This document shows, in pieces, positions 31,421-60,030 of a stretch of 64,000 bases of DNA (its first letter is position 1; every line of letters starts with the position of its first letter). The stretch lies in contig FN649728.1 of NCBI GenBank assembly GCA_000310025.1, positions 6,286,426 through 6,350,425 of the forward strand. The letters are read 5' to 3'. The DNA is from Ectocarpus siliculosus (lineage: Eukaryota > Sar > Phaeophyceae > Ectocarpales > Ectocarpaceae). The notes beneath the pieces are model-generated. The model saw nothing but the letters and a program-made list of their open reading frames with translations, was not told the DNA's origin and did no database searches. The position numbers and the translations under genes were made by a program.

Positions 31421-31492
31421 CGGAAAGATTGTTGTCGCTGAGACTTAGCCACGTTAGCGCTGTCAGCCCGCCCAGCTCGGGCGGAATCGTGC
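31421..31492 (-). CDS. Single LRR exon (72 nt), cassette 1
   Basis: On the minus strand a pyrimidine-containing ...CCCTCAG acceptor precedes, and a GTGAGG donor follows, exactly 72 nt encoding one 24-residue leucine-rich repeat. Both borders fall after the first base of a Gly codon (phase 1), so the exon is symmetrical and could be duplicated or skipped without changing frame. Visible pattern: T-IPPELGGLTAL-x-x-LSLSDNNLS. LRRs of this SGxIPPELGxLxxL type form ligand-binding solenoids in plant-like and brown algal receptors. The frame is also open 133 nt upstream to an ATG at 31623-31625 (minus strand), a distance preserved in cassette 2, so a short read-through protein is an alternative. No neighbouring LRR exon is visible, so the gene is a fragment or has very long introns. 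Confidence 0.75.
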
Positions 31493-31870
31493 CTGAGGGA
31501 TTTGGTGGTAGCACGGACCGGAACGAAAATAGTTTCACGTACCACGTCTGTCTGCCACTCGGGAGCACCATTGCAACCATATTCCCGCTGCATAACAAGC
31601 CAAGAATGAGCAGTCTGCTCTTCATTTCGTGTATAACCTCGAACGTTTGCTAGGCATGTCAACTGCGGTCTCACCAGCTGAGAAGGTGCTAGTGTTTAAA
31701 CAATGTTCAAGAGATTAATCGTACACATCACAGGTGGGGCAGGGCAGTGGGCGAGAATCAACGCATATTCGTGGTGTCATGTCTGTACCCAAGGATACAA
31801 GGGAAAGCGATTGTGAATTCCGAAAATCGTATTATCGACCGCCGTAAGACAAACGAGAACCAACCTCATC

Positions 31871-32769
31871 TCGAGGCCGAGTGCTACAAGGACATACAAC
31901 GTCACGTTCGGGAAACATGGAGCTGGAGGGAAGAGCAGAATCCATTTCGAGCAGCAAACCAAATCGTTTCACAGACGAATCCCGAGTCCGCAGCTGCGAA
32001 TTGGAAGGTGCGGTCGATGCCCTAAACGCTGTTGCTGTTGACGTTCTTGTCACGCTTCCATAGTAAAACGTTGTAGAAGACACTCGTGGCCTCTGGTCAG
32101 TACACCCCCAGGGCGGAATGAATCACATCAGCCAGAAAGGCCCAGAAAGAGGTGAAGGCACCCCAGTCAACTCATCACCTTTGAACTACTCAGGCCACAA
32201 TATCCAATCATTGATGTTGGGGTTGGGTAGCCTGGCAAATGTACATCCCGTAGCCCGGATTTGGAACCTGAGTCAACAACCAAGATAACTCTCTGGGTAT
32301 TTCGGGTGTGAGAAGGACAGTCACACACCTGTCATGCCTATTCCAGAGACCTGGTCAACATTGTTTTATGCAAAATGTATGGGTCACTCAAAAATGGCAA
32401 CCGCTCACCAAGATTGAAATTGAAAGACGCCATGATAATGCACGACTATTGGTAAATGTGGAGGAGGATGAAGAACTTTACGAAACCAAAATGGCTAACA
32501 GGCAACTACACATTGCGGTGCGGTGGTTGCTGCAAGATATCGCCTTGTTGTCTGAAACCTCTCGGGGTTTCCCATTTCCTTAGTTTCGGGGGCGAGATCG
32601 ATGCATCCCCGTACAAGGGTTCTCTAATCCATCGACTGCTGGCACGTTCTCGCAACCGCACTTAATAAATTTCCCGCAAGGTAAATGTCATCCACAAACA
32701 TAGCTGCACCGAAAGCGCTTCGATTTCTTAAACACGTGGTGCCGAGTTTCTCGACAGAATGTTACCCTC
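31871..32769. other. Unrecognised sequence after U1 copy B
   Basis: Only short frames occur, such as 32308-32583 on the plus strand and 31832-32083 on the minus strand, and neither has a domain. I see no mobile element here. Confidence 0.4.
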
Positions 32770-33786
32770 ATACTTCCTCTGTATCATAAGTCTGTGCCGT
32801 TATGTTTTTGCGCCCCCTTAACGGTGTCCGATCGGTTTTCCGATTTTTCGTTGAATTCTCCGGCGTTTTTTTAGCAAGAAAAACTTTTGCTTACTTTAGT
32901 TGGTGCTTGAACCATGCGGCTGAACGGCCGGAGAACATTGAGTTGGCCTAAAAACGGCCATATTTTGCCCTTTTCCACGTAGGGGGTGTGTGGGGCTAAA
33001 CGCCTGTCCCGCCCCCAAAAACTCAAGCATTATCCCCACCCCAAAGATAACCCCCCTCCTATACTCCATCAGCCAAACGCGCCCCCCATATATACTAGTG
33101 ACCCCCAACACTCAAATCAAGATATTTGGGATTTACACACTAAAACCAAGACACTTGGGGGCCGCACACAAGAAACAAGACACTTGCAGGGCAACAAACA
33201 ATAGTAGTGCCCGAACCCAACCCCCCCCTCCTACTCAACGATACGTGCCGCGTCCGCCAATACTCAAACCAGTATAATCGTGACCCCACACAAAAACCAA
33301 GACAATTTGGGTTTCACCTTAAAACCAAGACACTTGGGGTTCCCACACTAAAACCAAGACACTTGCGGGTAAAAAAAATGTCTGTTGCTGTCGGGGGAAA
33401 ACAAAGGGAAAAACTCGATTAGTCGTCCTCGCTGTCGCTGGGACTCGATGCCATCCAGGCGTGAGCCTTCTCAAAAGCCTCCTTATCGTATTTTACCACC
33501 CTCTCTAACGTCTCTTCCCTCTGTCGCTTTCTGACCCCGGTGTGTTCTACTGCGAAGTCGTAAAATTCTCAAAAGAGTTCTCAATAAATTATACCGAAAT
33601 ACGGCCAAAATGGGCATATGTTGACCATATTTTAGTGTGTATCACGGTGTTCGATTTTTTTTTTCTTGTCATCTTCGTATGCTCTTTGCCTTTCAACGCA
33701 CCCGGTCAAAGGCTAAACGTCAACGTTTAAGTACCCCAACGACTGAGCGCCCAAAACGGCACAGACTTATGATACAGAGGAAGTAT
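32770..33786. mobile_element. 1-kb segment bounded by a perfect 32-nt inverted repeat
   Basis: The 32 nt at 32770-32801 (ATACTTCCTCTG...GTGCCGTT) are exactly complementary to 33755-33786. Identity drops sharply inside and is weak outside. The interior contains the 28-29-bp minisatellite and A/T-rich ends but no transposase-like frame. A non-autonomous DNA transposon or an inverted duplication would both explain it. I see no clear target duplication and no second copy in the window. Confidence 0.5.
33110..33370 (+). repeat. AC-rich minisatellite, period 28-29 bp
   Basis: The phrase AAAACCAAGACACTTGGGG recurs near 33142, 33293, 33321 and 33350, with degenerate forms near 33114 and 33171. Spacing is 28-29 bp where copies are adjacent. 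The gap at 33180-33290 equals about four more units that have decayed. Confidence 0.7.
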
Positions 33787-34518
33787 ACCCATACCCTTCG
33801 GCAACATCGCCGAGCACAAACTGCGAAACATAATGGATTTGTCCAGCAGCGAGAACACCTCAAGGAACACCAACCCCGCCCGGGTGAAGGACCTTAAGAG
33901 AGAAGGGCAATCTTGACGAATTTCATGTTTCCCCCGACTCCTCCGCCGAGAGGGCAATAGGTCATCGTTACACGTCTGATCGATGTTCAACAATCGTCGG
34001 GTAGCGGGGAAAGGTGGGGGCTGACGTTTCCGATGAGTCGTGAGACTCACATTGGAGCCATACCACATAACAGGGAACACCTAACTCCGACGGCCAACAA
34101 GTCGGTGGGGCAAACTCAACCTCGCGCCTTCTCGTCATGGTTACAAACGGACAATGCTTCTGTCCATGTCCCGAGTTAGCTCGTAACACCTGTGAGCCAA
34201 AATACACCTTCTTGGATGAATCACAAAGAGTAGGTTGGCGGGTTCTCGATGACCAGAAGTAACAAAGTGACGCAAGTACCTGCCAATTGCTGGCTTCCGA
34301 GAAACTCCTATAGAGTGCGGTTGCTTGGGGAAGAACTCGGGGAGGTGATGGAAGACCACTGCAACAAAGTCTAGGTTCGTTGGTATTGTACACAAGCTAT
34401 CACAGGTAGTAGTCTCAGTGAAGAGTTCGACATCTATCTGCTAGAAACCATTCACGGGCTTCTGAACATTCAGGATGTTTCGTACTTCTGATGCAGCCTG
34501 GGGATGTGAAAAACACGA
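33787..34518. other. Mostly unrecognised sequence leading into U1 copy C
   Basis: The first 200 bp look unique. Some phrases near 34085-34145 and 34470-34518 resemble U1/U2 sequence (for example 15740-15780), suggesting an old, eroded copy. No gene is supported. Confidence 0.4.
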
Positions 34519-37500
34519 CGTGTACTGGAAAAACTGAAAACTCCCCAGGTTCCTTGGAGAAGGACCAAAACTGATCCATACCCGCCTTGACTCTTTCATC
34601 GACCTATGGCAACATTAGCACGTGGAAAACTTGACAAATCCCACACGGACGACTCTCTGTTCTCTGCGTAACGGCCTCCTACAGGGAGCACGAATGCATC
34701 TCTAAAGCGAACGGTCAACTCGTGAACGGATTTGGATCGCATCTGAGAGGCAAACCTCTTCCTTCTTGGCACACAGACGACACAACGCAGAAAATATGAC
34801 CAATGTATCATCCCGGTCCACTCATCAGGAGGTCCTGTTTCTAAAGATCGCCCTTGCACCAACATTAGTGCAGGCGCCTTCTGACCTCTGCTTGCGGCAC
34901 GTATCCAACACCGAACAGGATTATCCCGGGGCTAGCTTGCTTTGGTAACCTGCGTGGCAACTCTGGAAAACAACGTTCGACGTGCCTAGGGTGCCCTTAA
35001 ACAAGGCGATACATAGAAGGGACACCCACGGTGGATGCTATAGCTGCCGATCTATTCCTCCCTCTAGCCAAAGACAGACATGTCGGAAATGCCCCAGTTT
35101 CACCAGTATGGTCGCGTGCAACATACGATGAACCATGAGGCTCGCCTCGTAGACCAAACGTGATTTTAAAAGACTTCCCGCCGGCCAAATGATCGTGGGG
35201 GGGCGAAATCAACCTCTTGCGTTATGGTGGTTCTTGCGACATGAAGTCGCGAAGAACGAAATCTGTTGGTGTACGTGTTCCGTTCGCATCATCAGCAAGC
35301 CGGAAAGCACCTCCTTGCACGACTCAAAGCAAGCATGGTTCGCAGTGTGTCTATGACAATATCAACGCGAGGTGCCGAAGATACTTGCAACTATATACTT
35401 TCAGAGAACCGTCTACGGAATGTGGAATCTTTGTATGTGTCCGGAATCGGAAGGGGATGGAAGAAGAGAAACAAACATGTCGTAATATTGCGTCCTCAAA
35501 ACTGAAAAAAATGAAAACACCCCAAACAAGACACACCCAACGTATTATGGTTCATTGAAGCAATCTAACAAGTAACGAAAGCACTTTATCCCACGTTTGT
35601 TGTTGCTCGAGGCTCTAGCGCCGAGTGCATACCGCAATATCCTTTGAACTAGCCCCCCACCATGAGTTAGCCCGACCCTCTCAAATACAGCCACGGTAGC
35701 ACAACAACGTTTGAATTAGCCCCGTGGTTACTGGAGTTTCTTTTTGTTTTCGCCTCGCTACCTTTGAGTTAGCCCCGGGTGTTCTTGCTCTGGTGTTCGT
35801 TTCTCAGCGAACAGGCCCTACAGCTGCGAACAAACAAAACAACCACCCATGGAACAGATGTCACGGCAGAGCAGAAGGTTAAACTGTGCTGACGCCACTT
35901 TTATATCTGATAAGTTCGTGGTTGATAAGTCACGCATTGTCGGCGACATACATGAGTCAAGACACCTCCAGCACCTGGTTCACCGAGGCGCAACCTCCGG
36001 TAGTAGTGGGATCTCTTGAATCTGTCCCGAGCATTCAAACAGAACAAAACACCTCTGCTCGGGCGGGGATTTGTTCGCCCGACGTCCGTGTTCTGCGTGC
36101 TCTTTTACCTCCAAGACTACTTGTACACCTGCTTTTGGACATTCACACGCTTGGGAGAAATCAGCACAAGCTATGCTTGACGGGCGTATACCATATGCTG
36201 GGTTCGGTGGCATCGGGAGATTCTTCTTCCACACGAACGAAGAGATGTCCATTGGCAAGCTTCTGGGTTGACCTTTTTTTCTTTGCATCACCAGGAAACG
36301 TAGCGAAGAGCCTGAGTGACTTCAATGTGTGTGTATCAGAGTGCGATTTCAATCGTTAGCTCCAGCTGCATGCAAAAACCCGGCCTGGCTTACTGACCGC
36401 TCCCAGAGGAGATACCTTTCTCACGACTTTGTGTGTTAGCGTACTGCATCACAGATGCTGATACACGAGCAAGAGTGTGCGATGAATCGACGTGTGTTCT
36501 GACCGAATGCCCGCTTGACAATACCACCCACGGAATGACGGTGGACATCAAAAGGCTTGGGGCATCCAAACCACGGAAGTACCTGTCCGATAAGTTCCAA
36601 AGCAACACCACCAATCCAAGTAGGTGAGGGCCTGAACACGAATGTATCATCAGACCATCCAGCTACCGTGGATACCGCAGGACACCGGACACTTTTGACC
36701 TTCCTACCCCACCATGAGACAACCATTCCAAGACAAGCGGGGGACCGGCCTCTTGCGCTTGCCCAATGGTAGATACGGAATCACAATGAGGTGTACGACT
36801 GCCGGCATAAACCTGCCCGGTGTCGGTAGGTGAAGCTCTCATACTTGAGCGATGAGGCCAGCGACGACGAAATGGCGACTGGAGTTCACTGCCTTCACGT
36901 CAAACCGGGGCCACATTCCTTGTCAAGGAAGTTCCAACCTGCGGCAATGCGTTCCACGATGTTGTAGTGCCGAGAGTGGTCGTCCGTCGGAGGGCTTGCT
37001 TGGCCGGTTTAGCCCAAATCTGTTTTCGGAAGGGTTTCACCGGCATCTGACGAGACCAGCGACCGTTTTCCGTGTATGCCACGTTTCGGGGTATAGCTTT
37101 CATCACATTGTATAGCACAAGTTCTCAACTCATACAACAAGGTAAAGTTATGCATACATTTCCCTGCTCATGGTGGAAATTACTCGGCTAAAGTTTGTTT
37201 GCCATTCGACTGCACTTTCACAAACCAATACACGGACGGACTTACGCTGTCCAGCTGAAACCTGTTCAAGTAGCAAACGATAGTCAATCGCAGATGAAAC
37301 AAGTCTTCACCGCCGTACCAGTTGTTTAACACGTTGTGTTTCGGTGTCACAGAAAGTGATGCAAATCGTTGCTGTGAAGAAGTTCGGATAGTGCAATACG
37401 CAGTGCTTCAAGTTCCCACATTTTCGAGATCGGGTTGTTGGAACAAGTCAGGCCTGAGGGCGCGTTAGTGATGGTTCATGCAAGGTATGACAGCATGCCT

Positions 37501-40500
37501 TGACGGTTGCATGTAAGAGATTGCACATCCGAGAGACGGTCAGACCCCGGCGTGTCGCTGGAACGAAGTGCATGAGCATCGACGCCCAAGCCAGAGATGC
37601 AGGCATGTCGCCGAATAATTCCGAAAACATGTAAATACACCAAAGGGCCTTGAGAAAGCGCCAGAGGGGGCAAGGGTTTCGAAATCATTTCTTCTTGATT
37701 ATATTGCACAACCTCCGGTGAAAATTACACGTTCTGGTGCGCACTTACGTCCCGGATGCGAGCAAAGCAATCACATTCCTTGCTCATGTTTCGGCGCATC
37801 CCCCGTGCTCAAGAAGCAATGTGCGGTAGGTAGCGAACAAACATCACAAGGGCGTTTGGAAGGGCTGCAGCAATGAAGAAGAGACGGACCTGGGGGTAAA
37901 GGAGCTGTGAAGTGTATCAGCATGCGGCTGTAATATTCCGGCGGGGTCTGCAGCGGTATGCGAGTGTTTCTAGCAAGCTAGGTGGAAATGCAAGCCCGGT
38001 TGAAACTTTGCGAGCGTATCGAGGACGACGACACCGGGCGTTGATGCCTGCCGGAAACTTTGCTTGCAGTAATCACTGTACTCGCTACATATTTCTCTTT
38101 CGTTGTGCCGAATTCTGGACCCCTCTCTCTCTTTCCATAATTTTTCGGCGCTATTCTCGTGATGCCCGGAGGAAGTACAACGTGCCCTTAGGTAGGGTGG
38201 GCACAAGTGATACTTCTGTATTCTTATTGTCGACGTTGTGCCTTCTGAGTTGCGCTCAGCCCCATGGCACCGTTCTTTGAATGCTTTCTGTGGTAGCTTG
38301 CCAAGAACCGTGCAGATATAGATCCGGGCGCGAAAGACGTCATTAAACCAGAACTCGAATTTTAGTTTGATTTCGATTCCCCGGGCGCCACCCCAACGTC
38401 CCGGTGTGAACAAATAACTCGGTGACTTTTTCAAAGCGCTGCACAGTTCGTGAAACAAAAGCCTGTTGATCTTCCGCCTCCCCGCATGGTGTCAATCACG
38501 TGGTAGCAGAAGGGCAATTTACAAGGAGAGCCACTGACGTTTGCTGACCTCTCAAGACTGAAGCAATCGCGAAGCGACCAGAGGGGTACAAAAGCGGTTG
38601 TTTCACCATTTCGGCGACGTAGTCTCGTGAGCTTCCTGCTTGTCCGAGCTAAACATCCAACGCGAGACCGGAGAACATGTTCTTTCGAGTTCTGTCAATC
38701 TTTCTTCGACAGTCCGCGTCTTCGGGAAAGGGGGGACGGTCGAACGTTTTGAATATTACTCATGCAAGCCCTGCGTTGTTTCCCAGTAGTTTACAATGTG
38801 GTGGCACACCGGAAAAATAACCGCAGAGGCAGAACACGCGAAACAGAACCCATAAATCGCCCCCAAAGATGGTCATCTACCTGACCCCCGGATACTACAA
38901 TCCACGTGGCTCTAACAACGCCTGACTGCTGCGACCCACCACAAGGTGGAGCCGGTAGGCTGCCATGGTAGCCACGGCTACCCTACGGTACGGAGTAAGT
39001 GTCTCACACGGTAAACGCTCCGAGACCAAATTCAGCAATGACACACGATGAAACAACCGCCTCGGGGCGTCGCTGAAAACAGAGCGCCACGAAACCACTG
39101 GGACCCCTACTCGTGGCGTCGATTTCCAAGACGAAAAACTTCAATATTTCCGAACATACGCAGGCGTTCCGATTGTCGTTCTAGAATTCCTCAAACTTTC
39201 CAACAGGTTCGTTTGCTTTCGAAATGCGTTTGAATAGTTTTGGTATTGGGGGTGTTTGTTTCATCTGTGGTGTGCATGCACCAGGACACCGTCTCAACAC
39301 GTGCATACATCAGAGACAAGTGTTCTTGGATTGTACGCGAAGAAGGAGGGCACGGCGCACGTTTAACCATCCTTCCGGTGGATAGTGTACGTCCCCGCTT
39401 CAAAGGCGCACATCTTATGTCAGCTCCCTGCTTGAAAGACACAAAAAAAATCAGAAGCAGGGTGCCCCGCAGATATCCAAAACAGGGGGGGGGGCCTGTG
39501 TTGATCATTCGGGACCCCCAGAATGATGCTCAAGGACACCTACCTTTCGAACTACACGGCACACTAGACAAGGCGAGCGATCTGCTGCTGCTGCCGCTAC
39601 TGCGTGTGGGTATGGATAAATTCGGATGACGTAGATAGAAGTGCAATTGCTGTTTGTGTGTTCGTCTTTGGTCCATTTTCGTGAAATTATGGTTAGATTG
39701 GTAAACTGTATTTTGTGCCAAATGATTTTGACCTAAGGGCAGGACCGACGGGCTCCAATCATTTTTTCTTCTTTGTTTTTGTCTGGTGTTTTGGGTTCTC
39801 CGACACTTCTAGTTTCGTTTCAGGTATAGTTTTGCTCCTTCCGTGTCTAGCAAGTAACCTGTGGGGCGCACAAGGTGTACGGTACGTATCGTATCAGAGT
39901 TAGTTGCAACGATGGTTGGCTGTCATTCTTTTAATAGGGCGGGGGGGGGGTGGTGGCAATGATATGCATCTCGGCAAGATGTTGAACACGGGAACGACGC
40001 CAAAGCAATAGAGAAATATAGCCAACAAAAAATAACAACAGAAGCAATACTTAGTACAACAACAGCTGCTGTTCCATTGTATGCCTCATCCAGCAGCACG
40101 ATACCCACCGTTCGAAGGACAATGCGGGGGGGGGAGTGTTACAATGTGAAGCTCCAAGAGCGAACGACCTGGTATGTATGTAAGAACGTGCGACTTGAAC
40201 CACCACCACGTCGTGATAGCCAGGTTTATGATGTTTTTTGCTTTTTGTGTTAGTATCCCTGTTGCAATTGCGCGTCTTTTGACGTATGGTACGCCTCCGT
40301 TGACCCCGGGGAAGGTGAGTCATCCTCCCCGAAATCTTAAGGACACTTCCCCGCGTCAAAGAAAAACACTATAAAAAAAAAGCCATGTCAAATGTGTGTC
40401 TTCAAAGTGGGGACGACTATAGGTTGAAAATAATGAAAATAATGTGTTGGAAAATAGGAGGGCAACGTTCGCTCCAAGATGCACGCTTGCAGAAGCAGAA

Positions 40501-42880
40501 CAGAATCGTCGTACAGTTTCGACTGTTGTGACGTTTGCAGATATCACGCGAAGAGAAAGAACACAAAACTGTGTACAAAACGAAATCGTGTCTTGTTTGG
40601 TAGAGCAGAACATCCTAAAATTTCGATGAAACCGCTCATTAAATACTGTGTGGGCAATACTTTGCAGAAGACGTAAATGATCAGGGCGATATTCTTTGTT
40701 ACGGGAACTGAAGAGCAAAAATAGAAAAATGTACTCCCATCCGAACACCAGGAAGGCCTGCGTCACAGGAACATCGACGACGGGCCATGTCCGAAATGGG
40801 ATGCCTCGCAACCAGTAGAGTGCGACGTAGCAAAGTACGCAGGGTTTACTATCAATAATGAAAACCAAGGTACGTAGATTCTTGCTCTCGTTCTGAATAT
40901 TGAATGAAATGAGCTTTGAGAAAGAAGGCGAAGAAGTAATTGTTCGGTGCGGTGACCAAATTTCTGCTCAATAATCAATTTTGTAGCAACCAGGGCGAAG
41001 GATGGAGTTACATACGTCTGCGAAGGGTGAATACATGTACCCGAGTAGACCATCGTGGAAATTTGAGGCCTTCCTCGGGACCACGTCGTTCAATGACACG
41101 CGGACTTGGGCAATGGTCCTATCGCAGTAAGCAAGGGATCACCAGAAGCTGGTTCCTGTGCATATGTGAACAGTTATACATTGGTGTTGACTGGTCGTTA
41201 GCAGTGGAGGCTGTTCGGGTGATCTTTTCACTTCTGTTTCCTGGCGGCTGTTCCGACTTGGAGAGTCCTTCATGTTCTTTGAAGCAGGTGTGACATTCTA
41301 TTCCTTCTTTCTAGCACATCAGTAGCGGGTAGAACAGCGAAGAACATCTTGCTTGGTCACAGGTATCCGTGTAACAGCAGTTAGTTTCGAAAACGCACAC
41401 GTCTGTACCTGCTGCACTCCGTGCTTGCGCACGCTGGAGGACCACAACAAAACACGCCCGCCCGCGAGAAAGGTCTGAACCGCTTAGTAAAGCGGGCAGG
41501 CCATTCAAGTACTGTAGAAATCTAGGAGGTGGGACGCCGTTGTGGCTCGAAGCGCGGCTGATTGATGGTGCGAGGTTAGCTGTCGGTCGGTCGGTCCCAT
41601 TTGCCCTCTAGTCAACTCAGACCAACACCCGCCGCATGTTTGTTCGTTTTCTCTTTTCTACTGCTGTCATCGACTCCCACGTTTGTGCCGCTGTGCTGCT
41701 GCTGCTGCACTCTGCTGCTCGGGTCTTGGTTGCTCATATTGCCTTACTACACCTCCTCCCTGGCTCTCACCCTTCGTGAGGCACAGGCAAACAAACGCTG
41801 TGGTACACTTGTAGCTAACAAGCACCCACGACCCGCAGCAGCACAGCGTGCACGAAGTCGGAACGTTGGACCGAACATGGAACGACGTTGTATGAACATA
41901 GAACATATCTAGTGATGACAAAATGGTTCTGCACCCAGGTCGCTGCGGACGTGAGTTGGTCTTTTTGAATTTGTTTTCCCCCCGTCGTGGTGGGTGCACA
42001 GTACGTACGTGCGTGTTATGTATGTATGTACTGCGTGATAGTTTGGCTGTGTCTGCTTACTTACGTGTATCCATCTTTCCTTTAATGTTTGAAAAAAAAA
42101 GCACACACACACACGCGTGCTCCTGTCTGGGTTCATTCGATCCTTCCCACCTTCTTAACAAATACATCCACATCCTGCGGCCTCTTCCTTTCTCCGGAAT
42201 GTGCGACACACGCCATGATCGATCATGATGCTACGGTTACGGCCCTGCAACATATAGCTACACGTCCGAATACAACACTTCTCCGCCCGCCTGTGGCGAG
42301 GGTGCGTGTGTGGTTTCCTGGGCCACAATATTGTACGGCTCTGATGAATTTCAAGTCGTTTGGCGGCCTGGAATCAGCGGCGGTGGGGGAAAACGCAGCA
42401 TCAGATAAACGGCAAATACATGCGGAGTGTGGAAGGGACGAACAACAGACTAGTGTGTTACATATTTAATCTATACTCCGTACATGCATATGTATGGGTT
42501 TTCTTTTTGCATGTTCTTGCATCACCCCCTGCCGCGGTGCTCTCTTTACCCCACTCCAGAGGGACGCCTTCCAATGAGTTACAATTTGTGTAATCGTACG
42601 CAGAGCATGGTTGCGAGGCCGAAGCAAGCCCTGCAAACGCCTCTTCAGGTGAACGGAGAAGGCCGGAAGGAATGTTGTGGGGGAGGTTGTGCGCCAATAA
42701 AACATATTCACTTCAGTACTCCAACGGTCGGCACATTTTTAATTTTGGTGTCCATTAAATCCAAACCGCCCAAATAGTAGAACTCTAGAGATTCTTGAGA
42801 GAACTTTGCGTGGTTGACGGATGCTGGAATTGGTCCTTGGTCGCTAGAGAACAGAGACGGCGAGATGTGCATGCCGTTGC
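34519..42880. repeat. Long repeat family U1, copy C
   Basis: This copy is collinear with copy A from its first base and shares the 1.4-kb insert (41166-42573), so A and C are the closest pair. It leaves the family at about 42880, after GAGATGTGCATGCCGTT. There it is fused to sequence that elsewhere (60150-60420) lies next to LRR cassette 3. Its short ORFs are generally disrupted relative to copy A. Confidence 0.85.
41166..42573. mobile_element. 1.4-kb insert, copy in U1 copy C
   Basis: This is the counterpart of 6509-7911, at the same site in the unit. It differs by small indels, including a shortened CTG run and a longer CA run near 42102-42113, which break the reading frame that is open in copy A. 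Confidence 0.55.
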
Positions 42881-42894
42881 ATGAGAAACATGGG

Positions 42895-43110
42895 ACCATT
42901 CGAAGTAGACGGCACGGGCAACATCAGCCCATTGCATCGAACGGCAACGCTGTGAAGGCAAACTGCCCCGCCCTGCCAATCGCACGGTAAGCCACGCCTT
43001 CAAAATGCCGTTGGTATGGCAGGGATATGACAGCTGAAACACACAAATACAGACGGTGAGTGATGAGTCGTAGAGTTGGCCTCACATACGCAGGTATAGT
43101 CTAACACAAG
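42895..43110. repeat. Copy of the sequence flanking LRR cassette 3
   Basis: The segment matches 60150-60420 (GAAACATGG, CATTCGAAGTAGACGGCA, GGCAACGCTGTGAAGGCAAAC and GTTGGCCTCACATACGCAGGTA are shared). At 59959-60420 an LRR exon lies directly to the left of this block. Here the left side is U1 sequence and the exon is absent. Confidence 0.75.
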
Positions 43111-46153: not shown

Positions 46154-46287
46154 CAAAATTAAACTGCGAGCAGACGTTCGGCGCGAACTTGAACTAGCCG
46201 CTCTCTGGCATGGATATTTTAGGGTCAACCAAAACGTTTTTCCCTATACGCACGATACCCCACGGTAGCAGACCTTGGGCTTGAAAG

Positions 46288-46347: not shown

Positions 46348-46790
46348 GTAAGTTGTCGGTGGATAACCAAATCCGTGGCGGCCCAAAACACCGAACTTGA
46401 TGTGACCTCTCGCAACCGTTGGCATTTTTTCTTCAACACAACCTTTTTGTTCCGGCGCATTCGGCACCTCACGGCGCCAAACCTTGGCATTGCCCAACAG
46501 CCCATGTTACTCGCTCCTTCCGGATACCAATCTTGAGGCAACTCGTTAAGTATTTGGCGAGATATCGGCTAACCCGTGAACAGAAGAGCGCAAAACCCAC
46601 CCTAGAAAAATCACCGCTTCGCTGCTGGCTCTTCCCCTGGCGCCAGGTCTTTTAGATTTTTTGCCTCATCTGTCTCCTATCCTCGTTCACATACACGACC
46701 CTCTTTTTTCCAGGTTTCCACGATAACGCACATTGATTTTGAGATTGTCCACATTTAGATTTTGATTTTTGGCACTTCGTTAATATACGG

Positions 46791-49700: not shown

Positions 49701-52170
49701 CGAGTAGACAATCATGGACATAGTCGGGCATTGCTCGGAACCACGTCGGTGATTGATACGCGAACCGGAAAAGGTCCTATCGGAGTAAGGAGGGAATATC
49801 GGCAGTTTCACTTTCTAAACTATTTCCCAACGGGGGTACTAGCGCGACCAGCAGTACCCTTCGAATTTCGATCAAGCCATGCCACCACTATTGTCTTAAA
49901 CGGAGAACGCCGGGAGAAAATGATGGCGGGTGGGGGGGAGGGCCAAGAAACCTAACATAGACTTGAGCCCCTCCACACGTAGGCATCTATCGCAACGGGG
50001 CTGGTATTGGTAGCACCTTCATCGCTGTGACTTGGCGCTTAAGTCGAAAACTACAACACTCAGTAAGGAGTATCACTGCACATGACAATGATTCTCAAAT
50101 ATATTCTTACGCTCGTGCGAAGCCTTGGGGCATGGTTGTCATTTCGCACGCAAGTCTTTCGAGTGCCGCAAAACCCAACCAAACGTGAGTGGTTCATTAC
50201 GGAATCGACGTGACGCATGGACGGTGCTCTTGCGGATGATTTGCGAAGATTTTTCCGGACTTTTTCCTCCCATGCTGCTCCCAACCCACACAGACTATAC
50301 GTGTCGGCTTGGGTGAAAAACGCTGGCCAAATCATGAGCATGGGGGAAGGTGTAATGGGGAGTCCGAACGGTCGTACCCCTGGTACAGCCTGGGGCTGCC
50401 GTAAACACATGTACCAGGAAACGTGATAAAGGCCTCAGGCTCCTCAGGGAGGGGCGAACATCGGCCCATCCTCGCCTTGACCCTCTCGTTGATACCTACT
50501 TTGTTTCGCGTGGTGTCACAGGTCATCACCGTGATCCACGGGTACTCTCAACGAGATAGAGATGGTCAACGGTCGTGCGATTGAATACCCGCGAGATTCT
50601 GTAGTTCCGTGATTCATTACCTAGAGGACACCGCTCTGGTGGACAGAGACGCGCAATCCCATGTGAAGGAGAGGTCACCCATCACACGCATGAGAAATAT
50701 ACCGTACATCGGATCAACACAACATTTGGCAAGTCGACAAAGGGGGGCACTCAATGAACGAGCAAATACCTAGGCTATACTGCGAAGAGTAGATGCATAT
50801 CGGGGAGATCCAAGCCAACACGTCATCGAATACAACGTTCCGAGCCACCCGCTGCGTTTCAACTTGGTCGTTCACAAATCATACCATACCAGCCATATAA
50901 AGCACTTAATCGGCGTTCGCGATTCGGGCCAGGAACCACCAGGATTGTAAACAAATTCTCCAACGAAACTCAGGTGAATGACTTGTGAACCCTCATATTT
51001 CTTGCTACGATACATACACTGTCGCTACCGCGCAAACACCGCTTGCTCGGGAAGAGAAAACCTGCCGTCCTAATTCGCTTCAGTTCGATATTCTGCATTG
51101 CTGGACTACCAAGGCCTGAACTACCAATGGCTGCCGCCCTCAAGACATGTGTCCTGAACAACGACGGCACTATTTCAACACAGGTAGCTCTCATTTGGTC
51201 AGCATCGTGCGATGCTTGCAGCCCGCATTTGTGCTTGCTTTGAGCAGCGATTCCCTCAACCAAATTCATAGCATGCGCATTCCCGTGCCGTTCATACCCT
51301 TGTCCCCACCGAAGAAAAAAAAGCTCGAACGACTACTGTGGTTGATGACAGCTCTCTTTGCAAATCTCCAAGGTCTAAAGAAATTGGCCTGGTCGGTCGG
51401 TCGAAAATCCCAAAATCGAACACGACCCGGCCTCGAACATGTGCACGCATGCAGTTTCTCTTTCCAGTCTTGGGATACTCCTCCGAGAGTATAGGGATTT
51501 GTTCCTTACTCAATCACCGAGTCTGAGCTATTGCCCTACTGCTGTTCTCTTTGTTTGGCATACTTTACCATTTTGTACGTCTCGATTGGGCTCATGTCGC
51601 GTACGTCTTACGAGTGGTTGGCGTAAACCACGGAGCACTATATACATGTCAAACTGTATATATTCTATTATATATAGTATGTCGTTCGATTGGAGGTTTT
51701 GTCCTTGGATCACCGAAAATCGTTTCATTGCCTGTGCAGAAGCGAGAGGTACTCGACAGGAAACATAACTGTTCGCCAAGTGCGAAGACCTTGTAAACGG
51801 CAACATAAACAGCAGCAGAGGTGACCCCAGCAAGTTCCCGATCACTGTGACTCAGAGGCTGAGTCTGACAGCCAACAAACTCGGAATAGTATCCTCGCAG
51901 CCCCACAAATCTGGGAAAAGCCCATCACTCAGCAAATCACTCCACCTGAGGACATAGAACAGTAGGTTCAGAATTGAACGTGAGCGGTACAATCGCGGAT
52001 TCGATTTCCAGTATGGACACGACCATTGCTTTCAATACTCGCTGTTCAATTCCTGAAAAACAAATCACTCGTTCTATTCAATAACAGGTGACTTTCTCCG
52101 AGTTAGCTAGACACCAAGTGGTGAGCAGGTGACACAGGTGATGATCGGAAGCGAGAACAATGCAATGAAG
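46791..52170. repeat. Repeat family U2, copy c, with U1-like start
   Basis: Positions 46800-48250 follow copy A 2550-3990 and 12009-13200. From 48250 it is the U2 version, collinear with 55871-59690. It ends near 52170 after GACTCGAG, where U1-type sequence (copy A 4020) takes over. Only short frames occur and none is recognised. Confidence 0.8.
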
Positions 52171-55064
52171 ACTCGAGTTCTCTCAACCGTTCTTCGACAG
52201 TCCGCGTCTTCGGGCAAGGGGGGACGGTCGAACGTTTTGAATATTACTCATGCAAGCCCTGCGTTGTTTCCCAGAAGTTTACCATGTGTGGCACACCGGA
52301 AAAATAACCGCAGAGGCAGAACACGCAAAACAGAACCCATACATCGCCCCCAAAGATGGTCATCTACCTGACCCCGGGATATGACAATCCACGTGGCTCT
52401 ACCAACGCCTGACAGCTGCGACCCACCATCGGGTGGAGCTGATAGGGTGCCATGGTAGCCACGGCTACCCTACGGTACGGAGTAAGTGTCTCGCACGGTA
52501 AACGCTCCGAGACCAAACTCAGCAATGACACACGATGAAGCAACCGCCTCGAGACGTCGCTGAAAACAGAGCGCCACGAACACACTGGGACCCCTACTCG
52601 TGGCGATAATTTCCAAGCCGAAAAACTACAGTATTTCCTAACATAAGCAAGCGTTCCGATTGTCGTTCTAGAATTCTTCAAACACTCCAACAGGTTTGCC
52701 TTCGAAATGCGTTTGAATGCTTTTGGTATTGGGGGTGTTCGTTTTATCTGTGGTTGCATGCACCAGGACACCGTCTCAACACGTGCATACATGAGAGACA
52801 AATGTTCTTGGATCGTACGCGAAGAAGGAGGGCACAGCGCACTTTTACCATCCTTCCGGTGGATAGTGTACGTCCCCGCTTCAAAGGCGCACATCTTAAG
52901 TCAGGCCCCCCTCGAAAGACACAAAAAATCTCAGAAGCAGGGTGCCCCGCAGATACCCAAAACAGGGGGGGGGGCACTGTGTTCAGCAATCGGGACCCCC
53001 AGAATGATGCTGAAGGACACCTTTGGAACTACACGGCACAATAGACAAGGCGAGCGATCTGCTTCTGCTTGTGTGTGTATGGATAAATTCGGAGAACGTA
53101 GCTAGAAGTGCAATTAATTGTTGTTTGTGTGTTCGTCTTTGGTCCATTTTCGTGAAATAATGCTCAGATTGGTAAACATTTTTGTGCTACCTGATATTGA
53201 CCTCTGGGCAGGACCGACGCTGCACTTCATTTGTCCATTGTATGTTTGTCTGGCGTTGTGGGTTCTCCGACACTTGTAGTTTCGTTTCAGGTATCGTTTT
53301 GCTCCTTCCCGGTTTAGCACGTAGCCGGTGCGGCGCACAAGGTGTAAAGTATCAGAGATTGTTCCAATGACGGTTGGCTGTATTTCATATATTTGGGTAG
53401 AGGGGGGGGGTAATTATATGCATCTCGGCAAGATGTTGAACGCGGGAACGACGCCAAAGCAACAGAGAAACAGTCTAAAACCAACAGAAATAACAACAAA
53501 ACAATATAATGACAACAGCTGCAAATGTGTGCCTCGTCCTGCAGCTATACCCACTGTTCGAACAATAATGTGGGGGGTGGAGTGTTACAATGTGAAGGTT
53601 TTTAGGCGAACGACGGCATGTAAGAACGTGCGACTTTCAACCACCAACACGTTGTGATCGTCAGGTTTGTTATGCCTGCTGCAATTGCGCACCTTTTGAC
53701 GTATGGTACATCTCCGTTGACCCCGGGGATGGTGAATTTTCATCCTCGGAATCTTAGTGACCCACTTCCCCACGAAAAAGAAAAACACTTGAAAAAAAAC
53801 AAACGATGTGTGTCTTCGAAGCGGGGACGACTGTTAGGTTGAAAATAATGCGTTGAAAAATAGGAGTGCAATGCTATCTGCACATCATCAACTTCCAATC
53901 GTTTGCTCCGAGATGCACCTTGCGGAATGGGGAGCGGAACAAAAATCGTCGTACAGTTTCGACTGGTACGACGTTTGCAGACATCACGTGAAGCAAACAC
54001 CACGTGAAGCAAAATAACACAAACTGTGCACAAAGCGCAATCGTGTCCAGGTTTGGTAGAGCAGAGCATCCCCTACAATTTCGATGAAACCGCTCATTTG
54101 ATCATATATTGTGTGGGCAATACTTTCCGAAAGACGATGGGCAATATGTGTTGGTACTGGAACTGAACAGAACAATAGAAAAATGTACTGCCATCCGAAC
54201 ACCATGAAGGCCTGCATCACAGGAACATCGACGACGGGCCATGTCAGAAATGGCATGCCTCGCAAAAAAATAGAGTGCGACGTAGCCAAGTACGGAGGGT
54301 GTTTTATGGGATTATCGAGAAAAAATGAAAACCAACGCAGGTAGAATTCTTGCTCTCGTCCTGAATATTGAATGAAATGAGCTTTTGAGAAAGGAGGCGA
54401 AGAAGTAATTGTTCGGTGCGCGGTGACCCAATTTCTGCTCAATAATCAATTTTGTATCAACCAGGGCGAAGGATGGAGTTACATACCGTAGGCTACCTCT
54501 GCGAGAGGTGAATACTGTACCCGAGTAGACCATCGTGGAAATTTAAGGCCTTGCTTGGGACCACGTCGTTCATTGACACGCGCACTCGGGCAATGGTCCT
54601 ATCACAGTAAGCAAGGGATCACATTAAGCTGTTCCCTGTTCATATTATGATTCTCCAATTTGCGTAATCTTACGCAGAGCATGATCACGAAGCAGAATCA
54701 AGCCATGCAACCCCCTCCTGTCATGAACGAAGAACGCCGGAAGAAATGTTGTGGGGGGGATATCCGCCAACAAATTATCGACTTGCGAACTCCAACGGTT
54801 GGTACATTTTCTATTTTTGGCTCCATCAAACACAAACCGCCCAGATCCTACGTTCTAGAAACTCTTGAGAAACTTCTGCGTGGTTGACGGATGCTGGAAT
54901 GGGTCCTCGGTCACTAGAGAACAGAGACGGCTAGATGTTCATGCCCTAGAGGTAGTGAGCTTGATGTTTCAGGAGGTGTTGACCGAGTAACCCGTGCCTA
55001 GCCGTTGCCACGACTGATGACGTTGTTGAAATTGCCAACCATCCCTTACACCAAATGTACCAAT

Positions 55065-55328
55065 TCAAGAACACCCAGCGTCTGGAATGGAATGATTTAC
55101 CACACTGCGAGATTGAAGTGGAAAGTCTCTAAAGCGCGGAGGTGAGTTGGTTCCCAACTCATTCGGATATTTCATGGGCGATAGCAGATGACGTACCTGC
55201 TGTACCTGCTGGACTTCGACGGGACAGTACAACAGCAATGACCAGCGGCTGTCACACCAAGCGAATCGCCATCGCATGAAGTACACGAGGTGGCCACCGG
55301 TCACTCCCGAGGCAGAGACGCCGAACAC
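55065..55328 (-). CDS. Possible downstream exon of an LRR gene, copy F
   Basis: Third copy of the frame also seen at 8322-8591 and 31114-31368. It reads GVSASGVTGG, an aromatic stretch, SRWSLLLYC, VEVQQVQQV and LSPMKYPNEL, then SIPDAGCS. It keeps the 6 extra nucleotides of copy B in frame. It lies on the minus strand about 95 bp after LRR cassette 2. Exon borders and function are unknown. Confidence 0.3.
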   Translation of the reverse strand: MFGVSASGVTGGHLVYFMRWRFAWCDSRWSLLLYCPVEVQQVQQVRHLLSPMKYPNELGTNSPPRFRDFPLQSRSVVNHSIPDAGCS

Positions 55329-55422
55329 GCCGACGATAGGCTAGCATAGAAAACGCAAAAAACTACCAACAACCAACAGCCAACACTCACTACACGCGAG
55401 ACAACCAACTGCAAGGCCTCAC

Positions 55423-55494
55423 CGGAAAGATTGTTGTCGTCGAGATCTAGCCTCGTTAGCGCCGTCAGCCGGCCCAGCTCGGGTGGAATGGCGC
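55423..55494 (-). CDS. Single LRR exon (72 nt), cassette 2
   Basis: Minus strand: a TTTCCTCAG acceptor, then 72 nt, then a GTGAGG donor, with both borders in phase 1 within Gly codons. The repeat reads A-IPPELGRLTAL-x-x-LDLDDNNLS. Compared with cassette 1, changes cluster at the variable x positions (Gly/Arg, Trp/Arg, Ser/Asp, Ser/Asp) while the Leu and Asn scaffold is unchanged, which is what ligand-face diversification looks like. The frame upstream stays open for 133 nt to an ATG at 55625-55627, as in cassette 1. No second LRR is found nearby. Confidence 0.75.
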
Positions 55495-55870
55495 CTGAGG
55501 AAATCAGCGGCAGCACCGACGCAAACGAAAAGAGTTTCGTGCAACAGGTCTTGACACTCGAGAGCACCTTTTGCGTATCCATGTTTCTGCTGCTGAACGA
55601 AGAAAGAGTGAACACGCTGCTGTTCATCTCGTGTTGCCTCCAATCATATCCACCGCCCCGCTAGCAGAGGGGGCCTCAGGGTTAAAAAATACATTCAAGA
55701 TATTTGCCGTGCACATCACGGGTGGGGCAGGGCGGCGGGTGAGAATCAATGCATGTTTCTGGGACTGCGCCCAAGGTGATCATGGAAAGCGGTTGTGAAC
55801 TCCGAAATTCGTGTAATTGACCAAACGAGAACGAACGTCATCCCGAGGCCGGGTGATACAAGGACATAGA

Positions 55871-58800
55871 ACGTGATGAGTCAGGAGAACATGTCTATCT
55901 CCTCGATTCCTCTCAACGTTTCTTCGATAGTTCACGTCGTCGGGCAAGGGTTGGGGAGGTTGAGCGTCTCTTTTTGTGTTGACCATTCAAGCCCTACGTT
56001 GTTTCCCAGCAGTTCAAGATGTGGTGGTACACGGAACAAACACCCGGAAAGAGAGGATACGTGAAAACAACCCCCCACAGACCAAGCCTTCACGAACGAC
56101 AACGGCCACCCACCTGAACCCGGGGTACTACAATCCAGGTGGTTCTAACAACGCCAAATATCTGCGAGCCACGTTAGGGTTAACCTGATGGGGTGCCATG
56201 CCCTACAGCTGGGAGTACATGCCTCGCACGGTAAACGCTCCGAGGCCACCATCAGAAATGACACATGATGAAGCGAATGCCTCCGGATATCGTTCGCAAC
56301 AGAGTACCTCAAAAAACAATGGGACCCCTACCCATGTCGCCGATTTCCAAGCCGGACAATTGCAATAGTACCGAAAATACGCAAGCGTCTCGATAGTTCC
56401 ACACAGGTGGCAAATTATCTCAAACAGGCGTTGCATTTGAAATGCATGTATATATTTTGGTTACTGGGAGTATTTGTTCTCGCCTGTGGTGTGTACTGGG
56501 ACACCATCTCAACATGTGCTCAGAATACAAATGTTATTGGAATGTGGGTAAAAAAAGCTGGGCACAGAGTATTATCAATCTTCGGGTGCACATGTCATAA
56601 ATTCTGCGTTGGAAAACTCAGTCTATTACTTTAGAACAGCATCAATTTGCTTTTCGATTGCTTAAAGTTGTACGCTTGCGGAATGGGAAGCAGAACAGGC
56701 CGGGTCAATGTTTCGACTGTTGTTCCGTTTGCAGACATTGAAAGAGAAATATGTACAAAACTGTAAGTAAAGCGCAATCAGTGTTCAGGTTTGATAGAGC
56801 AGACCATACTAAAACGTAGACGAAACGGTCGGGAAATATTCTGTGTCAGTTTGCGAAAGACGCAAGTCACCAGGTGGGCAACATTCTTCGTTGCTGGAAC
56901 TGAAAACGAACAAGCACATGAACTGCCATCTAAACACAATCAACACTCGCATCACACGAACATCAACGACGAGCCATGCCGGAAATTGCATGCCCTGCAA
57001 CCAAATGCAGCACAACGCAGGCCGTCCAAGAAACTGTCGAAGGTGGGCACCAACGTCAAGTGTGGTTAGATTTTTCGAAGTCGTGTTAAACAATGCAATG
57101 CGCTTGTTGAAAGGAGGCCAACCAGTACTAGTTCGGTGCGGCGACCCATGTTCTGTCATGACGGTTCGGTGTGGCGACCCTTTTACTGTTTGAATACAAC
57201 GTATTGGCAATTCATGGCGAAGGGTACGAGCCACATGCGGCGGGCTTTACGCCTACGAAGGGCAAACACAAGAGTTGAAGATCATGGACACATTCGGGCA
57301 TTGCTCGGAGCCACGTCGGTCATTGACACGCGAACTGGAAATGGTTCTATCGGAGTAAGGAAGGGAATATCAGCAGTTTCACTTTCTAAACAATTTCCCA
57401 ACGGGGGTACTAGCGCGACCAGCAGTACCCTTCGAAATAAGATCAAGCCATGCAACTACTATGGTCTCAAACGGAGAACGCCGGGAGGAATGATGGCGGG
57501 GTGCGGAAGCCCAAGAAACCTAACACAGACTTGAGCCCTCCACACGTAGGCATCTATCGCAACGGGGCTGGTATTGGTAGCACCTACATCGCTGTGACTC
57601 GGCGCGTAAGTCCAAAACAACAACATTCAGTAAGGAGTATCACTGCACATGACAATGATTCTCAAATATATTCTTGCGCTCGTGCGAAGCCTTGGGGCAT
57701 GGTTGTCATTTCGCACGGGAGTCTTTCGAATGCCACAGATCCAAACCAAACGTGAGTGGTTCATTACGGAGTCGACGTGACGCATGGACGGTGCTCTTGC
57801 GGATGATTTGCGATGAAGATTTTTCTGGACGTTTTCCTCCCTTGTTGCTCCCAACCCACACAGACTTACGCTAGAGCAAGTGTCGGCTTGAGTAAAAAAC
57901 GCGGGCCAAATCATGAGCATGGGGGAAGGTGTAATGGGTAGCCCGAACGCTTCGTACTCCTGGTACAGCCTGGGGCTGCGAGAACACATGTACCAGGAAA
58001 CGTGACAAAGGCCTCAGGCTCCTCGGAGAAGGGCGAACATTGGCCAATCCTCGCCTTGACCCCCTCGTTGATACCTACTTTGTTCCGCGTGGCGTCAAAG
58101 GTCACCACCGTGATCCACGGGCACTCTCAACTAGATAAGAGATGGTCAACGGTCGTGCGAGGAATACCCGCGTAACATTGTGTAGTTCCGCGATTCATGA
58201 CCTAGAGGACACCGCTCTGATGGACATGCACCCACAATCTCATGCGAGGGAGAGGTCACCCACCACACGTATGGGAAAATACAGTACAGTACATCGGATC
58301 AACACATCTTGCAAGTCGACAACGGGGGGCACTCAATGAACGATTAAATACCTAAGCTATACTGCGCGGAATACATGCATGTCGGGCAAATCCAAGCCAA
58401 CACGTCACCGAACATAACGTTAGGCGCCACCTGCTGCAATTCAACTTGGTGGTCGTTCACAAAATCATACCATACCAACCCTGGAGCGCTCGGCGTTCAT
58501 GATTCGGGCCAGAAACCACCAAGATTGTACACAAATTCTCTAACGAAGCTCACGTGAATGAATGTGAAACATCGTTACTCTTACTAGGATACACTGTCGC
58601 CACCCTTCGCGCAAATACCGCTTGTTGGAGAAAGGACAACTTGCCGGGCTCCAGCAATTCCTTTCATTTCCATATTTTGGATTGCCGGACTACCAATGGC
58701 TGCCTCCCTCAATGGCATGTGTGCTGAACAATGACGGCACTATTTCGACGCAGGTAGCTCCCAATTGGTCAGCATCGTGCGATGCTTGCAGCCCGCATTT

Positions 58801-59690
58801 GTGCTTGCTTTGAGCCCTCAATACACAGCGTTTCCCCCAACCAAATCCATAGGATGAGCAATCCCGTGCTGTTCACACCCTTGTACCCCCTGAATAAAAA
58901 ACGCTCGACCGACTACTGTGGTTGCAATGGCAGCTCTCTTTGCAAACCCCCAAGGTCTAAGGCAGTTGGCCTGATCGGTCGGTCGAAAAAACCAAAATCG
59001 AACTCGCCCCGGCCTCGAAGATGTGCACACATGCAGTTTCTCTTTCCAGTCTCGGGATGGTATGGGAATTTGTTCTTCACTCAATCTCCGTGTCTGAGCA
59101 ATGGCATTCACTCCTGTTCTCTTGGTTTGGCATAGTACTCTTTCGTACGTCTCGATTGGGCTCATGTCAAGTGCGTTTTGCGAGTGGTTGGCGCAAATCA
59201 CCGAGCACCATATGTCAAACTGTAGTATATTCTCGTATATCGTTCGATTGGAGGTTTTGTCCCTGGAACACCGAAACTCGTTTCTTTGCCTGTGAAGCAG
59301 CGAGAGGTACTCGACAGCAAATATATATTCGTCAAGTGCGAAGACCTTGTAAAAAGCGACATAAACAGCAGCAGAGGCGACACCGCAAGGGACCCGATCA
59401 TTATGACTCAGAGGCTGAGTCTGACAACCAACAAATTTGAAATAGTATCGTCCCAGACCCACGAATCTGGGAAAAGCCCATCACTCAGCAAATCACTCCA
59501 TTTAAGGACATCGAACAAAAGATCCAGAAGTGAACGTGAGCGGCACAATCGCGGATTCGATTTCCGGTATGTACATGACCATTGGTTTAAATGCTCACTG
59601 TTCAATTTCGGAAAAACAAATCACTCGTTCTCAACAATAACAGGTGACTTTCTCTGAGTTAGCTAGACACCAAGTGATGAGCAGGTGACG
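55871..59690. repeat. Repeat family U2, copy d
   Basis: The most complete U2 copy, collinear with 48250-52110 and, from 57390, with 15186-16909. A minus-strand frame of 214 codons (58818-59462) is open here but broken in copies at 16622-16909 and 51290-51910; it has no recognised domain. Sequence beyond 59690 diverges toward the LRR cassette 3 block. Confidence 0.8.
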
Positions 59691-59733
59691 TAGGTGTTGA
59701 TCGGAAGCGAGAACCATGCAATGAATACTTGAG

Positions 59734-59753
59734 TATAAAAAAGTGTGACGTCA
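59734..59753 (+). promoter_or_regulatory. Possible TATA box next to a TGACGTCA site
   Basis: TATAAAA (59734-59740) is followed by the bZIP/CRE palindrome TGACGTCA (59746-59753). The order, TATA upstream of the bZIP site, is not the usual one for a plus-strand promoter. The match may be chance. Confidence 0.15.
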
Positions 59754-59958
59754 CTTCCTGATGCAGCATCGGATTCTGGAGAAGGCATCTCTTCACTTGG
59801 GAACATGCTTGAAAACACCCATGTCTCCTCGGAGAGGGCACGTATTGACCCATCGACGCTCCTACCCTTTCACCGACCACCAAATACAATTCTGGGGTGC
59901 GACCACGACAAGGACTCGTTGATGCACGCGGGCGTTTCCCCCCTGTAGCATCACTCAC

Positions 59959-60030
59959 CGCTCAGTTGATTTTCGCTTAGCACCAGCTCCTGCAGAGCCG
60001 TCAGTCCTCCCAGAGCACACGGAATCGGTC
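59959..60030 (-). CDS. Single LRR exon (72 nt), cassette 3
   Basis: Minus strand: an acceptor GTCGTCCTTCAG, then exactly 72 nt, then the donor GTGAGTGATG. Both borders are phase 1 in Gly codons, as in cassettes 1 and 2. The repeat reads P-IPCALGGLTALQELVLSENQLS, a diverged LRR in which the PEL of the other two cassettes is CAL and the ladder is ENQLS. Because intron phase and exon length are identical, the three cassettes would be interchangeable by recombination. The surrounding block (59691-60420) is a third context, partly shared with 42895-43110. The other exons of the gene are not visible. Confidence 0.75.

What the first reader, a model, noticed from the sequence alone, without database searches (positions are those of the whole stretch)
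31421..60030. Three orphan LRR exons, each exactly 72 nt, AG/GT-bounded and phase 1
Seen directly: cassettes at 31421-31492, 55423-55494 and 59959-60030 (minus strand) have identical length, identical border phase, good splice signals and three different versions of one LRR. Known: in Ectocarpus, LRR-ROCO and NB-ARC-TPR candidate receptors encode one repeat per exon, and exon shuffling has been proposed to diversify them. Inference: these isolated, symmetrical cassettes scattered through recombining repeat units could be a donor reservoir for LRR exon exchange, or the wreckage of such genes.
Basis: partly seen in the sequence, partly recalled or inferred. Interest (0 to 1): 0.82.

Follow-up and report, generated by a model that had tools for sequence, protein, structure and literature searches.

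The report
LRR exons of a giant-intron gene
The three small leucine-rich-repeat exons are real, but they are not orphans: they look like consecutive exons of one receptor-like brown-algal gene whose introns were swollen by local duplications, and the part of each repeat that would touch a target seems to change fast.

Summary
In detail: three minus-strand 72-nt exons, AG/GT-bounded, phase 1 at both ends, each encoding one 23-residue LRR. They are not orphans. A scan of the surrounding 164 kb (partly N) finds 10 such units, all minus, all with splice borders; reversed sequence gives none. Eight lie in series behind a single 5' exon (N-terminal domain, LRR cap, phase-1 donor; C3:6375549-6376268) and spliced together read as one LRR domain. 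A compact paralog at C3:3.53 Mb has one exon of each type in series, introns 0.4-0.7 kb. The window is mostly intron expanded by segmental duplication; exons 31421 and 55423 are copies of one type. Published ligand-facing codons exceed flank divergence (odds ratio 4.3, P about 1e-5; four of 11 pairs pooled) while the framework is conserved: a diversifying receptor fits better than wreckage. Nothing found supports a donor role here. Transcription is untested. In passing: three arrays elsewhere, 0.6-4.6 kb from Roc-domain matches, hold 19, 22 and 19 such exons (14, 16 and 16 complete) in both orientations, where exon exchange becomes directly testable.

The parts
31421..31492 (-). LRR exon, type A (TIPPELGGLTALTWLSLSDNNLS), 72 nt, phase 1-1
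55423..55494 (-). LRR exon, type A, second copy (AIPPELGRLTALTRLDLDDNNLS), 72 nt, phase 1-1
59959..60030 (-). LRR exon, type C (PIPCALGGLTALQELVLSENQLS), 72 nt, phase 1-1
28168..31902 (.). duplicated block carrying the exon at 31421
   Evidence: 84.5% identical to 52176-55874
52176..55874 (.). duplicated block carrying the exon at 55423
   Evidence: C221 carries a 98.5% copy of its exon-bearing part, window 54436-55876
57933..60423 (.). duplicated block carrying the exon at 59959; paralogous blocks with type-C exons lie at C3:6268388-6270869 and C3:6362477-6365295 (the latter aligns to window 57512-60423)
   Evidence: 80.8% and 77.8% identity
7914..8606 (.). partial copy of the A block that breaks off before the exon (exon-less copy)

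Best explanation
The three exons are internal, in-series exons (LRR 4, 5 and 6 of 8 single-LRR exons after the cap) of one minus-strand LRR gene spanning about C3:6252673-6377999. The gene has an upstream frame with coiled-coil-like repeats, an N-terminal exon whose LRR cap ends in a phase-1 donor, then 72-nt phase 1-1 LRR exons. Unequal recombination between repeats duplicated exon-plus-intron segments, swelling seven of eight introns to 4-47 kb and raising the LRR exon count (4 in the compact paralog, 8 here). Because each exon is symmetrical, every duplication or exon skip keeps the frame. Selection then diversifies the ligand-facing codons while keeping the LRR framework, as expected for a recognition receptor. 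Shown here: exon anatomy, order, frame, homology, substitution pattern. Inferred: that the compact form is ancestral, transcription as one unit, splicing across the long introns, and a recognition role.
For: Eight of 8 LRR exons behind the 5' exon, up to the last one found, are on one strand with intact AG/GT and frame. One 5' exon was found in the cluster, in a 321-aa open frame whose cap ends ..ENGLSG|GTAGGT; paralog caps also end at a phase-1 donor (C221, C3:3.53 Mb). The C3:3.53 Mb paralog has cap, C, D and A exons in series and an E-like 72-nt AG/GT exon after them. Between these two loci blastn aligns mainly the exons and their near flanks, besides repeat pieces. Codons 14, 16, 18, 19 (positions from PMC11378527) versus intron flanks: odds ratio 4.3, P 1e-5; framework versus flanks: 0.40, P 0.0025; four non-overlapping pairs pooled. 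Of the 11 pairs, 5 show the ligand-codon excess at P below 0.05. Chance that six of these exons stay intact with framework under neutral substitution: about 5e-5 in a simple simulation.
Against: No RNA evidence. Introns of 18-47 kb would be extreme, and two of them contain N or gap stretches, which could hide ends of separate genes. No 3' end was found beyond the last LRR exon; the frames downstream were listed but their Pfam scans failed and were not repeated. In 6 of 11 pairs the ligand-codon excess is not significant (P 0.063-0.8, including the youngest, B versus C221, P 0.15), and I had seen the alignment before testing. A versus B alone shows pN about equal to pS. In C exons synonymous sites are also conserved relative to flanks in most comparisons, so framework conservation need not be purely at protein level. 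In the compact paralog the N-terminal exon matches in two different frames, the second with a stop inside: a frameshift or an extra intron, so that copy may be damaged. The simulation ignores shared ancestry and indels.
Confidence: 0.6

Rival explanations
1. Partly dead gene: the exons are real descendants of a working LRR gene, but after intron swelling only some (or none) are still spliced; the window exons are recently silenced copies.
For: Introns are very long and full of duplicates and a retroelement; exon-less copies of the same blocks exist; no 3' end found; the compact paralog's N-terminal exon is split between frames.
Against: All 8 exons found are intact in frame and borders; pooled over four pairs, framework slower than flanks and ligand-facing codons faster.
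Confidence: 0.2
2. Several shorter LRR genes in tandem, whose other 5' exons lie in N stretches or were missed; the three exons belong to two or more of them.
For: Exon order D-C-C-C-A-A-C-E may contain repeats of the paralog order C-D-A-E; 12,024 N lie between window end and the next exon; C221 carries a second 5' exon (59% identical in protein) with its own C and A exons.
Against: Only one 5' exon match on C3 6.24-6.40 Mb; every exon found in the series has phase-1 borders on both sides.
Confidence: 0.12
3. Donor reservoir for LRR exon exchange.
For: Same exon format as hundreds of half-pattern matches in this genome; Teng et al. propose mostly LRR-only sequences as a possible reservoir (PMC11378527, section 15).
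Against: Single orientation, in series behind a 5' exon; duplicates carry about 0.6-4 kb of flank, i.e. segmental duplication rather than exon-sized exchange; the C250b copy, whose exon differs more than its flanks, has no closer donor among the 5 matches found.
Confidence: 0.08

Closest known systems
Brown-algal LRR-ROCO genes with 72-bp LRR exons (Teng et al. 2024, PMC11378527: abstract, sections 11 and 15 and passages seen; Zambounis et al. 2012 recalled, not held)
   Same: 72-nt exons, LRR in nt 3-71, one repeat per exon, variation at positions 14/16/18/19
   Different: No Roc match in or near the locus; LRR exons here mostly 4-47 kb apart; the N-terminal exon of this family was not compared with ROCO proteins
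Non-ROCO sequences with 72-bp LRR exons in S. japonica (15 reported, PMC11378527 section 15)
   Same: 72-bp LRR exons without ROC-COR, most of them LRR only
   Different: Here a conserved N-terminal exon (six loci) and giant duplicated introns; their sequences were not compared
Plant BRI1-like receptor kinases (LRR cap)
   Same: Cap stretch resembles the first LRR region of BRI1-like 1 and 3, at E 0.42-0.61 only
   Different: The match is not significant; no kinase was seen, but downstream frames were not Pfam-scanned
Lamprey VLR cassettes (recalled; one search gave listings only)
   Same: Only for the mixed-orientation arrays elsewhere in this genome: LRR modules in both orientations near a candidate receptor gene
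   Different: No assembly process, recombinase or somatic variation shown; the window locus has uniform orientation

Membership tests
72-bp LRR exon module of brown algae | exon exactly 72 nt, LRR of 23 aa in nt 3-71, symmetrical phase | tested here: met
   definition read in PMC11378527 section 11
72-bp LRR exon module of brown algae | variation concentrated at LRR positions 14, 16, 18, 19 | tested here: met
   pooled over four pairs; 5 of 11 single pairs at P below 0.05, 6 not
LRR-ROCO gene | ROC domain downstream of LRRs | tested here: not met
   67 Roc matches at E 0.01 or better in the genome, none in C3:6.22-6.40 Mb or near C3:3.53 Mb; nearest C3:6658172. N stretches and divergent domains remain a loophole
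LRR-ROCO gene | COR domain | tested here: inconclusive
   PF16095 gives one match in the whole genome (C17); PMC11378527 says InterProScan did not find the COR domain of brown algae
N-terminal-domain LRR gene family (C3:3.53 Mb, C221, C16 and others) | conserved N-terminal exon followed by LRR cap | tested here: met
   47-55% identity to the cluster exon for three relatives
Expressed, spliced gene | spliced transcripts across the borders | not testable with these tools
   no RNA data
Templated cassette system (VLR-like) | donor modules copied into an expressed gene | not testable with these tools
   no population or somatic DNA data; orientation at the window locus is uniform

The most novel reading that the evidence does not exclude
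The genome runs a DNA-level LRR exon system. Several hundred matches to the 72-nt phase-1 LRR exon format exist. Near Roc-domain matches such cassettes are packed with a median spacing of 244-270 bp in both orientations, so part of them must be inverted or copied into the sense strand to be used; that would create receptor variants by inversion or gene conversion, germline or somatic. The window locus would be a relative expanded by slower segmental duplication.
Probability: 0.15. Interest if true: 0.95.

Novelty: new variant of a known kind. Interest (0 to 1): 0.6.

Why it matters
The locus shows how a candidate recognition receptor can gain exons: symmetrical 72-nt LRR exons duplicated with their introns, then diversified at the ligand-facing codons. 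It separates two ideas often merged for brown algae: germline duplication with selection (supported here) and exon exchange (not needed here). The mixed-orientation arrays give specific coordinates at which exchange or inversion can be tested.

Tried and rejected
Rejected: orphan cassettes (a series exists); wreckage; transposon-carried exon (the 401-bp query around exon A has 9 genome matches: three in the C3 6.3 Mb cluster, five on unplaced contigs C250, C364, C221, one at C3:3.53 Mb; the 251-bp query around the C exon has 7, all in the cluster, on C221 or at C3:3.53 Mb); ROCO gene. An apparent recombination breakpoint at the C221 C-type exon (against C 132k: upstream 51%, downstream 19% divergent) is not claimed as shuffling: against the window block homology resumes about 1 kb further upstream, so an insertion is simpler. 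The open frame upstream of exons 31421 and 55423 was considered as a longer first exon; the acceptor context shared by paralogs makes an internal exon likelier, but it is not excluded. The correlation of flank and exon divergence among C exons was weak and not significant. Pfam, NCBIfam and PDB sequence searches did not name the N-terminal domain.

Led nowhere: structure prediction of the N-terminal exon, the machine being busy; Zambounis 2012 not held; PMC4513859 has no occurrence of LRR, leucine-rich or ROCO in the main text; PMC3879662 passages only mention ROCO/LRR genes. The Pfam scans of the frames downstream of the last LRR exon failed and were not repeated.
Full report
Setting. I read 50 kb on each side of the window, a second locus at C3:3516000-3546000 (one base missing), all of contig C364 (16,827 bases), 20,000 of 37,291 bases of C250 and 30,000 of 45,590 of C221, 9.8 kb of C16 and 10 kb further left on C3. 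N stretches lie in the 164 kb (12,024, 3,061 and 100 bases), in C221 (7,684) and in C250 (100), and in the last 10 kb (about 6.5 kb).

Observation. The three cassettes are exactly as described. A weight-matrix scan built from 14 LRR exons of these loci, both strands, 12 bits or more, gives in the 164 kb 10 hits, all minus, each with AG before and GT (nine) or GC (one) after at 72 nt. The reversed sequences of all six stretches give none. The matrix includes most of the exons it then finds, so the informative parts are the null, the single strand and the borders. In five other fetched LRR loci (L001, L002, L003, L007, L008) the same scan has 9 hits, none with AG/GT at that spacing, so the borders are not a by-product of the LRR motif.

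Not orphans. From 5' to 3' on the minus strand: a 500-aa open frame with coiled-coil-like repeats (L032:6072-7574; all Pfam matches below their cut-offs); an exon with a conserved N-terminal domain and an LRR cap (C3:6375549-6376268); then LRR exons at C3:6374324 (type D), 6368973 (C), 6364830 (C), 6346384 (C, window 59959), 6341848 (A, window 55423), 6317846 (A, window 31421), 6270403 (C) and 6252673 (E). The cap ends in a phase-1 donor and the joined exons read as an unbroken LRR domain. Introns are about 1, 5, 4, 18, 4, 24, 47 and 18 kb. The first 18-kb intron, next to the window end, contains 12,024 N and the 47-kb one a 100-N gap. Two further LRR units lie at C3:6398872 and 6399465, upstream of the 5' exon. 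I found no 3' end: LRR scans and frame lists further left gave nothing clear, and Pfam scans of those frames failed and were not repeated.

Relatives. The N-terminal exon query matches six loci: the cluster, C221, C16, C2, C3:1.32 Mb and C3:3.53 Mb (7 matches, two in the last). The C3:1.32 Mb match has a stop inside, and the two C3:3.53 Mb matches are in different frames, the second with a stop: a frameshift or an extra intron there is unresolved. In the C3:3.53 Mb gene the cap is followed in series by C, D and A exons and an E-like exon, which scores below the scan threshold but is 72 nt with AG/GT and matches the cluster's E exon; introns are about 0.4-0.7 kb. Between this locus and the cluster, blastn finds mainly the exons and their near flanks, plus retroelement or repeat pieces and a few weak stretches. 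In the C16 relative several LRRs share an exon (hits spaced 72 nt apart, mostly without borders) and one LRR frame runs to a stop. The N-terminal part has no convincing Pfam, NCBIfam or PDB match.

How it grew. The window is built of large local duplicates (blastn of the window on itself): 28168-31902 and 52176-55874 carry the two A exons, and 57933-60423 carries the C exon and matches blocks with C exons left and right of the window. Some block copies stop short of the exon (window 7914-8606 and others). The exon A region was found only in this cluster, on unplaced contigs C250, C364 and C221, and at C3:3.53 Mb (9 matches). So exon number rose by segmental duplication with flanks; exon-sized transfer was not seen.

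Selection. Positions 14, 16, 18 and 19 of the LRR come from PMC11378527 (section 11), read before the test, though I had also seen the alignment. I pooled four non-overlapping pairs of the 11. These codons differ more than 150-nt flanks on each side (odds ratio 4.3, P 1e-5). The framework, defined by me after seeing the alignment, differs less (0.40, P 0.0025). Single pairs are mixed: 5 of 11 show the excess at P below 0.05 (for example C250a/C250b ligand codons 3 of 12, flanks 13 of 300; C 34k/C window 7 of 12 against 42 of 297); 6 do not (P 0.063 to 0.8, including B/C221, the youngest, P 0.15, and A/B, P 0.2). Among C exons the last 34 nt differ by 21-41% whatever the flank divergence, while the first 38 nt differ by 5-11%. 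Synonymous sites of C exons are also conserved relative to flanks in most comparisons, so conversion or nucleotide-level constraint may contribute. A substitution-only neutral simulation gives about 5e-5 that six of these exons stay intact with their framework; it ignores shared ancestry and is only a guide.

Family question. By exon format this is the published 72-bp LRR exon (the paper calls it phase 2; nt 3-71 encode the LRR, so the borders are the same). It is not a ROCO gene by the test available: none of 67 Roc matches lies in the cluster or at C3:3.53 Mb. Teng et al. report 15 non-ROCO sequences with such exons in S. japonica and suggest they can be a reservoir. I did not find a description of this locus or of giant introns in such genes; my searches were in an open-access library that lacks Zambounis 2012, so this is not proof of absence. 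None of these searches settles whether mixed-orientation LRR exon arrays are already in print.

Genome-wide, in passing. The 3' half-pattern of such exons (LRR end plus GGTRAG) has 481 matches against 13 for the pattern read backwards; the 5' half-pattern has 537 against 6. Only the first 100 places of each are listed. On contigs C1-C5 these give 116 exons, 78 with both halves at 72 nt, 38 with one half only; of 80 same-strand half-pairs in the two lists implying a length of 40-110 nt, 79 imply 72. Of 11 clusters with at least 3 exons on C1-C5, 5 are single-stranded and 6 mixed; counting complete exons only, 4 are mixed. The three largest, C4:2033761-2038663 (19 exons, 14 complete), C4:4683439-4690029 (22, 16 complete) and C5:1694091-1702135 (19, 16 complete), switch strand 8, 9 and 9 times with a median spacing of 270, 244 and 244 bp, and complete exons occur on both strands. 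Roc matches lie 0.6-4.6 kb from all three: C4:2029906, C4:4678682, C5:1693304; the two on C4 are weak, below the family cut-off. A single-LRR protein query also gave mixed strands in 14 of 22 clusters of three or more hits (150 of 459 candidates scored). Assembly error, old inversions with silent exons, and active inversion or copying all remain possible.

Verdict. A real and coherent feature, correctly seen and wrongly called orphan. The most likely reading is a diversifying LRR gene with giant, duplication-swollen introns; transcription is untested.

Noticed in passing
C4:2033761-2038663, C4:4683439-4690029, C5:1694091-1702135 of the same genome (outside the window): Arrays of 19, 22 and 19 LRR exons of the 72-nt format (14, 16 and 16 complete) in both orientations, median spacing 244-270 bp, 0.6-4.6 kb from Roc-domain matches (two of the three Roc matches weak). 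Not explained.
   Followed up: partly
window 16391-20062: LINE-like element on the plus strand: endonuclease-like stretch (E 3.7e-5, 24 bits against a cut-off of 24.5) and reverse transcriptase (E 3.8e-29); a 379-bp piece is 98.4% identical near the C3:3.53 Mb LRR gene.
   Followed up: no
window 62246-64000: 157-bp tandem satellite, 11 copies, 95% matches, followed outside the window by 12,024 N.
   Followed up: no
contigs C250, C364, C221: Unplaced contigs up to 97-98% identical to stretches of the window or its left neighbourhood, with further A exons (all three) and a C exon (C221); C221 has its own 5' exon, 59% identical in protein.
   Followed up: partly
L032:6072-7574 (C3:6376497-6377999): 500-aa open frame with tandem coiled-coil-like repeats just upstream of the N-terminal exon.
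   Followed up: partly
window 60556-61449: Ala/Pro-rich 297-aa plus-strand frame followed by a TGT microsatellite (61514) and a 37-base A run (61692), perhaps a second retroelement; no Pfam match.
   Followed up: no
C476:356535: An LRR_8 match lies in a reported open frame of 18,877 aa.
   Followed up: no
C3:6398872-6399536: Two more 72-nt LRR units, one with a GC donor, upstream of the cluster's 5' exon; a donor half-pattern also matches at C3:6396603.
   Followed up: no
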